Of a stretch of 64,000 bases of DNA, positions 58,028 to 61,000 are shown piece by piece; the first letter of the stretch is position 1, and each line of letters starts with the position of its first letter. The translations under genes and the position numbers were made by a program. Below the pieces are notes generated by a model that had not been told where the DNA came from, did no database searches, and was given only the letters and a program-made list of their open reading frames with translations. This stretch comes from Sphaerolaimus hirsutus (Eukaryota; Nematoda; Chromadorea; Monhysterida; Sphaerolaimidae), in assembly GCA_964036195.1 (NCBI GenBank), contig OZ038457.1, positions 7,839,147-7,903,146 on the forward strand, read 5' to 3'.

Positions 58028-61000
58028 TCACTTGTAGTAGGGCGGCTTGAAGGGCCCGTGCTTGGACAGGCCCATGTAGTGCGCCTGGTCCTCGGACAGA
58101 CGCGTCAGCTCCGCGTTGAACGCGCACAGGTGCAGCGCGGCCACGCGTTCGTCTGAAATGTGCGCGCGGCTGTTTGTTGGGATTGGATGGGGTGGGATGG
58201 TCGCATCACGTAAAAAAATACGGTAACGTGAAATTGCATGTAAAATGTCACATTGACAAATGCGTTAAACGTCGAATGCCTGTAGAAAATGCGAGTAAAT
58301 GTAACCGTTTTTTGGACATTTTAACACGTTTGACACATTCGTGTGACGTTTTTACAGGGTTCGGGAGTGTTCGCAGCAGGCGCCGCACAATTTGGATAAC
58401 ACAAATTCGAAGTGGCTGTAAAATGCATTGCGTTTAAAGATATGCAGCCACATTACAGTGCACGCATTTTACTGTTTTCAGGACACTCATCTCAAGAGTT
58501 TGAGAATTTGTTTCAAACTTGTCACTTTCACTTATCCTGTCAGTTTGCTGCGTTTCAATTTGGCACAAAAAGAAACCTTTTATCTCCATTCGACGTTTTG
58601 TCTACATAATCGGCGTTCAATCCTTTATTTTACAAAAAAATAGCCCCCCCCCCTCAACAAAAATCGCCCACCGACACTTACCCAATTTCTTCGGCAGCAA
58701 GTACACCTCCTGGGGACTATACCTCCCATCGGGCGCCGTGTGCAATTCAATCAGGGCCAAAATCTGAGTGACGCATCCTATACTAGCGACCTGGGGACAG
58801 TCCCATACCCTGTAAAAGTCCCTGTAAAGTGTAAAAGACCCTGTCAAATGTCATGTGTCGTGTAAAAGACAATGTAAAGTGTCATGTGTATCCAAATATT
58901 ATTGTATCGTATCCAAATCTTATGTCTTTGTAGCCAAATCTATGTGATTTGTATACAAAAACGTAAGATCAGGATACAATAAAATATTTGTATACACATG
59001 ACACTTTACAGGGTCTTTTACATAACACATGACATTTCAAGGTCCTTTACACCTCACAGGATCTTTTACAGGGTCTGGGACTAGCTACCAGGGCGGGCAC
59101 GCTGGCGCAGGTCAAGTTCAGCATGCGGCCCTCGGCGAGCAGAATAATTCTGCGACCGTCGGGCCATTGGATGTGGTCGCATTGCGAGCGCACGCGCTGC
59201 CATTTTAGTTCGGGGGTTCGGATGGATTCCTGCGGGGGGGTGGATTTTCGGATTTCATTGATCTTTCACGATCAGGTGCCAATTCCGAGAATTGAAAAGT
59301 GACAAGTTGAGTGACAAGTGAACGCATAGGTGACAAGACTTTTAAAAACAACTTGTTGTTTTTGTGAGGGGGGGCATTATGCGGAGGTCCAATATACATG
59401 CTTTTTCAAGGTGTAGTAGGCAGAAAAGCCTAAACAGAAAATAGCTAAAAATAGTTACCGTTATTAAAAAACCATAGTTTTCCAGAGCTTCTATTTTCTT
59501 CCAACCCGACACTTACCACGTCGATTTCCACATTCGAGTGGCCCATGTTGCACACGATGGCGTTGTGCCGAAGAGAATCGAAATGGAGCCGGGTGATGAC
59601 ATTTTTATTGCCCGTGCAGGATATCAAGATGTCGGTCTGGGTGAAAAATGAGATAAACGGTGAAAAAGGAAAAGGCGGAGTCGCGTGCAAGCGATGAATG
59701 TTTTTTTTCTTGAAATGTTTCATCTTTTTTGTCAGTAACAATTTTTATTTTATTAATGATCACGTCATGATGGCGTGTTTCCTTAAAAAAAGCATAGCAT
59801 TTTGTGCAGTCCGCGGAGTATACACAAAAAATAAAATCCGATATTATACACGTTTCTGAACTGGGCGTGTTTTTTTTTACAACAACACAATCAAACCCTC
59901 ACTTGTTTCATCGTGTCCACAGACAGACCCTTGACCGCGTATCCATCCATACACGCTTGCAGAGCGCAAATGGGGTCGATCTCGGTGACTGCGACAACGG
60001 CGCCGAGTCCTTTGAGCGCGCCGGCGACGCCCTTGCCGACCTCGCCGTAGCCGCACACGGTGACCGACTTGCCCGCGATCATTACGTCCGTTGTGCGTTT
60101 CAGACTGAGACAGTTTTGATGGGGGTTTGATGGGTTGGTTACATATGATTGTATGCGGATTTATGATTGATTTTATTACACATTGAGTTTAATTCTTAAT
60201 TTTTTATTTTATAATCGTTACCTAAATTACTTTTTGAAATTCACTTCGCGTGGATTTTTAGCGTTTTCATGGCAGCACTTGCTTGCACTTTTCTACTTAT
60301 TTGAGTAAAGATAAATGTTTTAATTTTCATTTTTTCGTGCCATTTCCGTCTCATAAGACGCATCAAACGGTGAAAAAAAATCAAACTCAAAGTCAATCAA
60401 ACAATAAATCCAAAAGCAAAACAAATATCATCAAAATCCACAAAATCGACCGATAACAAAACCACCAGCAACCAAACTAACGCATCAACAATACTTTCTC
60501 TGCAGCAGTAAATATTGTCATACTTGCTGCGCACAACAGCGTCACTTGTATTGATCGCGGGCGCTGGCAAATTGCCCTCTTTGGCAAGGGAATAGAGTCT
60601 GTGCACACCGGTCACGCTGTCTTCCACGATGCCCCTGGGGCGAGATTTAATTTGCCCGACACGTTTTTTGTGGGGCAACCCGATAAATTGATATGGAGGT
60701 TTATGGTTCCTGATTCAAGATACTTTTTCAAATGATAAGAAAAATTGGAAGTGACAAGTAATTTGTCAGGGTAACTTTGTCAGGGTAAGTCAAATTGTGC
60801 ACATTTTACACTTTATTTACATGACGTTTGACACTTTATGTGACATTTTACAGGGTTTTAAGTGACACCCGACGAACAGACCACCCAAAAAATCGGACAA
60901 CCCTACAAAAACCTCATCGGGCAAATCAAACCCCATCCCTGAGCGCATTAAAAGTCCCTGCAAAGTGCTTGTGCATCCAATGGGTCGTGTCGCCGCCATC

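What the first reader, a model, noticed from the sequence alone, without database searches (positions are those of the whole stretch)
58791..59088. A MITE is an exact intron in a highly conserved AHCYL sequence
The 298-bp intron begins and ends with the inverted ends of the R7 element (GTAGCTAGTCCCAGACC ... GGTATGGGACTGTCCCCAG). The exons join as [13 protein letters not shown], matching the deeply conserved SAHH-like sequence without gain or loss. The element is bounded by CTGG/CAGG, a short target duplication, so the insertion created the intron. This is the hallmark of an introner element, here built from what looks like a hAT-type (CAGTCCC...GGGACTG) non-autonomous transposon.
Basis: partly seen in the sequence, partly recalled or inferred. 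Interest (0 to 1): 0.95.

Follow-up and report, generated by a model that had tools for sequence, protein, structure and literature searches.

The report
Transposon-made intron in an animal gene
A short hairpin-forming jumping element sits exactly where an intron should be in a conserved animal enzyme gene, and copies of the same element look like ready-made introns in other genes of this animal, so the jumping element appears to be making new introns.

Summary
The AHCYL-like gene (minus strand) has a GT-AG intron, 59088->58791, that is a TIR element (58794-59088) plus one copy of a 3-bp target duplication. The joined exons align to the AHCYL protein 3mtg without a gap at the junction, and the intron folds as one hairpin (z -22.9). 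The family is large: 5,593 places match its 5' end with at most one mismatch. Of 68 sampled copies, 23 are flanked CAG/CAG, 21 CTG/CTG, 6 CTG/CAG. Nine junctions in eight gene pieces join into conserved proteins. The hAT label is not supported: CWG duplications and one TIR starting GGG resemble NuwaI (PIF/Harbinger-like) transposons. Proposed mechanism: one TIR starts GT (donor); the CCCC end plus the second target copy gives the acceptor. CAG targets give GT-AG at once. CTG targets give GT-TG; AHCYL, Na/K-ATPase and cyclin Y look like CTG insertions whose acceptor copy later became CAG. Genome-wide, CAG excess is stronger at the acceptor side. How CTG/CTG copies in genes are tolerated is unsolved. 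No RNA, relative or autonomous partner was available. New member of a known kind (introners), rarely reported in animals.

The parts
58791..59088 (-). The intron (GT-AG, 298 nt): element plus downstream target-site copy
   Evidence: joined exons match 3mtg without a gap at the junction
58794..59088 (-). The MITE proper (295 bp); its first two bases (gene strand) are the splice donor GT, its CCCC end is the pyrimidine-rich stretch before the acceptor
   Evidence: ends fixed by comparison with the family copies
59089..59091 (-). Upstream target-site copy, CTG on the gene strand (the Leu codon of VPAL)
58791..58793 (-). Downstream target-site copy, CAG on the gene strand; its AG is the splice acceptor; probably CTG changed to CAG
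   Evidence: order of change inferred from L063 and L076
58799..58843 (.). Outer inverted-repeat arm, pairs with 59038-59082
   Evidence: 84% complementary
58846..58900 (.). Inner inverted-repeat arm, pairs with 58983-59037
   Evidence: 91% complementary
59089..59229 (-). Upstream AHCYL exon ([10 protein letters not shown]...CASVPAL)
58682..58790 (-). Downstream AHCYL exon (VASIGCVTQ...LLPKKL)
60635..60938 (-). Another AHCYL intron, GG-AG, with inverted ends (ATTTGCCCGA) and CAG before it and at its end: possible second TIR element as intron, different sequence family
   Evidence: genome copy number not obtained
33229..33420 (-). Copy of the same family in a sushi-domain reading frame, GT-AG (CCG exon copy, CAG acceptor copy)
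   Evidence: Pfam Sushi 22.0 bits, cut-off 20.7
50747..50917 (-). Copy of the same family in an EGF-like reading frame, GT-AG (CAG/CAG)
   Evidence: EGF_CA 24.6 bits, below its cut-off of 27
10287..10459 (+). Copy of the same family, CAG/CAG, first bases GA instead of GT; host frame unproven
13355..13558 (+). Copy of the same family, 5' end GTGCC; coding context unproven
22400..22603 (+). Copy of the same family, GG at both ends; coding context unproven
39841..40050 (+). Copy of the same family, ATG/ATG flanks; coding context unproven

Best explanation
The AHCYL intron is an introner: a non-autonomous TIR transposon (MITE) that inserted into an uninterrupted exon at a CWG site, duplicated those 3 bases, and is removed from the transcript as a spliceosomal intron without changing protein length. 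Donor: one TIR begins GT (family consensus GTGCCAG) while the other keeps GG (GGGGCAG), so a G-to-T difference at position 2 of one TIR supplies the 5' splice site. Acceptor: the element's CCCC end followed by the second copy of the target gives CCCC(C)AG. Targets that read CAG on the gene strand are spliceable at once. Targets that read CTG (probably AHCYL) first give GT-TG and become ordinary GT-AG when T in the downstream copy changes to A. The long hairpin brings both splice sites together. Mobilisation by a NuwaI/PHIS-type (PIF/Harbinger-like) transposase acting in trans is inferred. Shown: exact intron geometry, large family, 3-bp CWG duplication, protein continuity across nine junctions, acceptor-side CAG excess. 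Inferred: actual splicing, insertion into an exon, order of the CTG to CAG change, a role for the hairpin, transposase type.
For: Exact ends and gap-free AHCYL junction. Hairpin z -22.9. Family: 5,593 matches to the 20-nt 5' end with at most 1 mismatch, 0 for the reversed control. 3-bp duplication: identical triplets in 47 of 65 copies, shuffled mean 22.6, largest value 33 in 2000 shuffles; CAG/CAG 23 and CTG/CTG 21 of 68. Other conserved genes with the element exactly between joined coding pieces: OSCP1 twice, SLC23-type permease and a cation-ATPase C-terminal region, L075, Na/K-ATPase alpha, cyclin Y, sushi and EGF-like frames in the window. Reading frame agrees across the junction in 12 of 18 copies outside the five training loci at score threshold 3 (p 0.004 against 1/3; 14 of 20, 11 of 15, 11 of 13 at thresholds 2, 4, 5). 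Acceptor-side CAG over CTG: 782 vs 513 and 3584 vs 2581, against 649 vs 563 and 1706 vs 1494 at the donor side; donor versus acceptor side p 6e-4 and 9e-6. NuwaI: CWG duplications, TIRs usually starting GGG, found only in animals in that study.
Against: No RNA evidence. About as many sampled copies have CTG/CTG (21 of 68) as CAG/CAG (23 of 68), and some CTG/CTG copies lie in conserved coding sequence (OSCP1, SLC23), where there is no AG at the element end; simple GT-AG splicing does not explain how these are tolerated. The donor side also has a CAG excess, smaller but significant (p 0.015; p 1.9e-4), which the model does not require. The acceptor-side CAG:CTG ratio is not higher in the 14-mer set after removing the exact 23-mers (1.35) than in the exact set (1.52), so no age trend is shown genome-wide; in the sample the trend (CTG/CTG:CAG/CAG 12:10 young, 6:14 older) has one-sided p 0.098. 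The frame test alone is weak for CAG/CAG (5 of 10; CTG/CTG 5 of 6). The codon model gave no clear sense-strand bias in the two main classes (13 sense, 8 antisense, 5 ambiguous, 17 non-coding of 43; an earlier version gave 17, 4, 3, 19) and called one proven sense copy ambiguous. No autonomous element with these ends was found. In AHCYL the two target copies differ by one base, and a longer imperfect repeat (GGTAGCTAGT/GGTCGCTAGT, 9 of 10) also spans the ends.
Confidence: 0.8

Rival explanations
1. The MITE landed inside an older intron at this position, and the remaining old intron sequence was lost, so the coincidence of ends is secondary.
For: Intron positions are often old (general knowledge); no relative was available to show the site empty.
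Against: The element with its 3-bp duplication fills the gap between joined coding pieces to the base here and at eight other junctions checked by homology; repeated loss of all flanking intron on both sides is unlikely.
Confidence: 0.05
2. A hAT-type MITE with an 8- to 10-bp duplication (GGTAGCTAGT/GGTCGCTAGT); the first reader named hAT but a 4-bp duplication.
For: 9 of 10 bases match across the two ends of the AHCYL copy.
Against: Other copies show a 3-bp duplication and a fixed GTGCCAGTCCC start; the exon happens to resemble the element start (GTCGCTAGT against GTGCCAGT), so the longer match may be chance or local conversion.
Confidence: 0.04
3. The insertions are not spliced: they are segregating null alleles or pseudogene copies, or are removed as DNA in the soma.
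For: CTG/CTG copies lack an AG at the element end yet lie in conserved coding sequence (L028, L064); CAG/CAG and CTG/CTG copies are about equally common; no clear sense-strand bias in the codon model.
Against: AHCYL, L063, L076 and the window copy at 33229 carry GT and AG although the exon-side triplet is CTG or CCG; the CAG excess is stronger on the acceptor side; the AHCYL frame is otherwise intact. Precise somatic DNA removal of this kind is not known to me in animals (recalled).
Confidence: 0.09
4. The introns spread by reverse splicing of RNA rather than as DNA transposons.
For: Proposed for fungal introners (stated in PMC9860276).
Against: Target duplication and terminal inverted repeats; CTG targets, and copies without a coding call, that a splicing-based route would not favour.
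Confidence: 0.02

Closest known systems
Introners (Gozashti et al. 2022, PMC9860276; abstract, Results section, one Methods section and passages seen)
   Same: Families of similar introns whose similarity runs to near both splice sites; TIRs and short duplications in many families; one splice site carried by the element and the other co-opted from the duplication; mostly aquatic lineages, copepods among them
   Different: Here a CWG duplication and two insertion classes (CAG giving GT-AG, CTG giving GT-TG) with an acceptor-side CAG excess; I did not find this family named in the text I read, and its supplements were not available
NuwaI group of PHIS DNA transposons (PMC4482050; abstract, passages and NuwaI section seen)
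   Same: 3-bp CWG duplications, TIRs usually starting GGG, animal hosts
   Different: One TIR starts GTG; copies act as introns; no transposase of this type linked to these ends
Amoebophrya introner elements (PMC7789003; passages seen)
   Same: Hairpin-forming repeated introns with inverted repeats and 3-5-nt direct repeats over the exon/intron boundary, many with non-canonical splice sites
   Different: Dinoflagellate; varied motifs without family-specific inverted repeats; here one large family with fixed ends in an animal
Micromonas IE-B and IE-D introners (PMC3879977; passages seen)
   Same: Introners with GT-TG splice sites
   Different: Green alga, 25 and 6 members, not described as MITE-like in the passages I saw
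Eurytemora affinis GA/GG-donor introns (PMC5714493; whole text seen)
   Same: Animal with recent intron gains and non-GT donors after exons ending AG; compare the GG-AG intron at 60938->60635
   Different: No transposon origin is described in that text; host identity here unknown

Membership tests
Introner (transposon-derived intron family) | Same sequence forms introns at different positions in different genes, similarity reaching both splice boundaries | tested here: met
   Geometry only: AHCYL, OSCP1 x2, Na/K-ATPase, cation-ATPase L075, cyclin Y, SLC23, sushi and EGF frames
Introner (transposon-derived intron family) | Insertion into a previously uninterrupted exon | not testable with these tools
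   No relative or empty allele held; inferred from duplication and exact ends
Introner (transposon-derived intron family) | Removed by splicing in RNA | not testable with these tools
   No transcript data; retention would truncate AHCYL
NuwaI (PHIS, CWG group) | CWG 3-bp target duplication | tested here: met
   Identical triplets in 47 of 65 copies; CAG or CTG on the upstream side in 53 of 65 and downstream in 56 of 65; the end finder favours such triplets (see Tried and rejected)
NuwaI (PHIS, CWG group) | TIR starting GGG | tested here: inconclusive
   3' TIR consensus GGGGCAG fits; 5' TIR consensus GTGCCAG does not
NuwaI (PHIS, CWG group) | Related DDE transposase of this clade with the same ends | tested here: inconclusive
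   163 DDE_Tnp_4 matches (150 of 306 candidates scored), but the four copies read (L084-L087) have other ends and no CWG before them; a second, weaker group was not read
hAT transposons | 8-bp target duplication | tested here: not met
   3-bp duplication in sampled copies; definition recalled

The most novel reading that the evidence does not exclude
In this animal, insertions into CTG sites are tolerated at birth as GT-TG introns because 3' splice-site recognition is relaxed (or hairpin-assisted), and are then converted to GT-AG by a T-to-A change in the second target copy. The genome would hold, side by side, newborn non-canonical introns and matured canonical ones made by one element family.
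Probability: 0.35. Interest if true: 0.82.

Novelty: new member of a known kind. Interest (0 to 1): 0.62.

Why it matters
How new introns arise is a long-standing question, and the broad survey whose results I read found transposon-made introns in only two animal groups (PMC9860276). A family with thousands of copies in one animal genome, whose target motif supplies the acceptor AG in about half of the sampled insertions, offers many natural test cases: canonical insertions, non-canonical ones and apparently repaired ones, some in conserved genes where the ancestral codon can be judged.

Tried and rejected
Autonomous partner from paired copies 7-10 kb apart: L009-L013 are another long repeat with MITE-like sequence near both ends; ORFs of 120 aa or more did not look like a transposase by eye. 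PIF/Harbinger transposase search: the four copies read have other termini; a 173-aa ORF of L085 hits no Pfam family at E 0.1. An 8-bp duplication was my first reading of the AHCYL ends (note) and a 4-bp one my second (note); both were dropped after the family comparison. Codon model for host strand: too weak (numbers in the Against line); not used for claims of orientation. Of 14 distinct proteins given to Pfam (10; 7, three of them repeats), five had no match at the thresholds used: L080, L040, L043, L050 and L048; cyclin Y (L063) was only below the cut-off in Pfam but clear in the PDB search. Organism identity: COX1 lies on C762 with 56% identity to human COX1 and 14 TGA; I could not name the species. 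Rfam: no match in the window at gathering scores.

Limits of the sample: the 70 loci L014-L083 lie on one contig (C1) and were chosen by a near-perfect 5' end, so they are biased to young GT-ended copies; 9 of 77 copies without a found 3' end were dropped, and 3 of 68 as repeats; the end finder allows a slack of 2 bases and prefers CWG-like triplets, which favours CWG; three palindromic copies (L027, L051, L052) are counted in both directions and L031/L032 are near-duplicates. The genome search scored 40 of 3027 candidates.

Full report
What was found. On the minus strand of the window, an AHCYL-like gene (S-adenosylhomocysteine hydrolase-like) has an intron from 59088 to 58791, 298 nt, starting GTAGCTAGTCCCAGACC and ending GGTATGGGACTGTCCCCAG. 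The flanking exons join as [13 protein letters not shown]. The joined protein of 392 residues (the part I assembled, not the whole gene) aligns to 3mtg, 'Putative adenosylhomocysteinase 2' (E 9.5e-187), with no gap at the junction. If the element were kept in the mRNA, a stop codon would follow after 13 codons, and the length is not a multiple of three.

The intron is a MITE. Its two halves are inverted repeats of 45 and 55 nt, 84% and 91% complementary, and as RNA it folds into one hairpin of -177.1 kcal/mol (shuffles -65.2 +/- 4.9; z -22.9; 0 of 200). A search of the animal's own 348-Mb genome gave 103 matches with 40 of 3027 candidates scored, the best other copies being about 83% identical (a lower bound). 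The family's 5' end, GTGCCAGTCCCAGACCCTGT, occurs 5,593 times with at most one mismatch, and 0 times when the pattern is read backwards.

Anatomy of the family. From 70 loci I recovered 77 copies, 68 with both ends. The element starts GTGCCAGTCCCAGACCC and ends GGGACTGCCCC; the reverse complement of the 3' end is GGGGCAGTCCCAGACCC, so the two end consensus sequences differ only at positions 2 (T or G) and 4 (C or G). The flanks are a 3-bp duplication: CAG/CAG 23, CTG/CTG 21, CTG/CAG 6, CAG/CTG 1, others 17, of 68. After removing 3 repeats, triplets are identical in 47 of 65 copies against a shuffled mean of 22.6 (largest value 33 in 2000 shuffles). In AHCYL the element is therefore 58794-59088, the exon-side copy is CTG (59089-59091) and the acceptor-side copy CAG (58791-58793), on the gene strand.

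Other conserved genes. Copies lie exactly between coding pieces that join into conserved proteins: OSCP1 with two copies, one CAG/CAG after RLRAQ and one CTG/CTG after KLYDL (L028); an SLC23-type permease, CTG/CTG (L064); a cation-ATPase C-terminal region, CAG/CAG (L075); Na/K-ATPase alpha, CTG/CAG, 93 residues aligned without a gap (L076); cyclin Y, CTG/CAG, 49 residues without a gap (L063); a sushi domain (33229-33420) and an EGF-like domain (50747-50917, below the Pfam cut-off) in the window. With AHCYL that is nine junctions in eight gene pieces. For SLC23, L075, sushi and EGF the profile match spans the junction but the matched lengths differ by 1 to 4 residues somewhere. A codon model trained on 690 codons gives the same reading frame on both sides of the junction in 12 of 18 copies outside the five training loci (p 0.004 against 1/3): 5 of 6 for CTG/CTG but only 5 of 10 for CAG/CAG. 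I set the upstream frame of seven sampled copies, five by homology (L028 second copy, L063, L064, L075, L076) and two by open frame only (L040, L080): six contain an in-frame stop if retained; the seventh (L076) has none but its length shifts the frame.

Mechanism. The donor GT is the first two bases of the GT-ended TIR; the acceptor is the CCCC end plus AG of the second CAG copy. Insertion into CAG on the gene strand gives a GT-AG intron and leaves the protein length unchanged. Insertion into CTG gives GT-TG. In Na/K-ATPase and cyclin Y the exon-side CTG encodes a Leu that is also present in the best solved relative, so the target was probably CTG and the acceptor copy changed to CAG afterwards. 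AHCYL has the same CTG/CAG pattern, although the residue in 3mtg is Phe. Of 29 sampled copies with CTG on the exon side, 20 have CTG at the acceptor, 6 CAG, and 3 other triplets (CTT, TAG, CAT) that are doubtful ends. By symmetry of insertion, CAG and CTG should be equally common in the element's own orientation. At the donor side CAG is slightly but significantly more common (649 vs 563 exact, p 0.015; 1706 vs 1494 for 14-mers, p 1.9e-4; the reversed CAG 14-mer control had 3 matches, the others 0). At the acceptor side the excess is larger (782 vs 513; 3584 vs 2581). The sides differ with p 6e-4 and 9e-6. This fits selection for an AG acceptor. It is not a dated trend: the ratio is 1.35 for the 14-mers that lack the exact 23-mer and 1.52 for the exact set, and the decline of CTG/CTG with divergence in the sample (12 of 22 young, 6 of 20 older, counting CTG/CTG and CAG/CAG only) has one-sided p 0.098.

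The unsolved point is how CTG/CTG copies in conserved genes are tolerated. TG is a documented alternative 3' splice site in human introns (PMC2374985, title, abstract and section list seen), and some Micromonas introners have GT-TG ends (PMC3879977, passages seen), so GT-TG splicing is the reading I favour. Null alleles that still segregate, or removal as DNA, are not excluded, and the codon model shows no clear excess of sense over antisense copies.

Which transposon. The CWG duplication and the GGG start of one TIR match the NuwaI group of PHIS transposons, found only in animals in that study (PMC4482050, abstract, passages and NuwaI section seen). They do not match hAT (8-bp duplications, recalled). 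The genome has 163 matches to the PIF/Harbinger DDE domain, but the four copies read (L084-L087) have other ends. The mobilising element is not identified.

Novelty. Introners are known. The survey I read in sections reports them, among animals and land plants, in only two groups, both animals (PMC9860276). Paper searches for introner with transposable elements and intron gain, horizontal and new introns, tunicate, MITE or animal genome, Harbinger, and copepod listed no title or abstract describing this family; subscription papers and preprints are not in that library, and I recall a 2025 survey of introners that I could not read. I therefore call it a new member of a known kind, with the CTG class and its apparent repair as the more novel part.

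Noticed in passing
window 60635-60938 (minus): A second AHCYL intron has GG-AG ends, inverted ends with ATTTGCCCGA and CAG before it and at its end; it may be another TIR element acting as an intron with a GG donor.
   Followed up: partly
L028 (read on its minus strand, copies at 665 and 1500): One OSCP1-like gene holds two copies of the family, one with GT-AG and one with GT-TG ends.
   Followed up: partly
L009-L013: 7-10 kb repeats with MITE-like sequence near both ends in opposite orientation, without an evident transposase ORF.
   Followed up: partly
L084-L087: A PIF/Harbinger-like family, four copies read (97-99% identical), starting GGCCCCGCGCACACTAG or GGCCCCACGCACACTAG; many further matches in the genome carry 4 TGA inside the domain match, perhaps because introns lie within it.
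   Followed up: partly
window 57290-57730: A dense TTTTCCGTTTTCCG-type repeat, also seen inside L084.
   Followed up: no
window 10287-10459: A CAG/CAG copy whose first bases are GA, so it would be a GA-AG intron if spliced.
   Followed up: no
genome contig C762 1872-3386: COX1 with only 56% identity to human, which suggests a fast-evolving mitochondrial genome.
   Followed up: no
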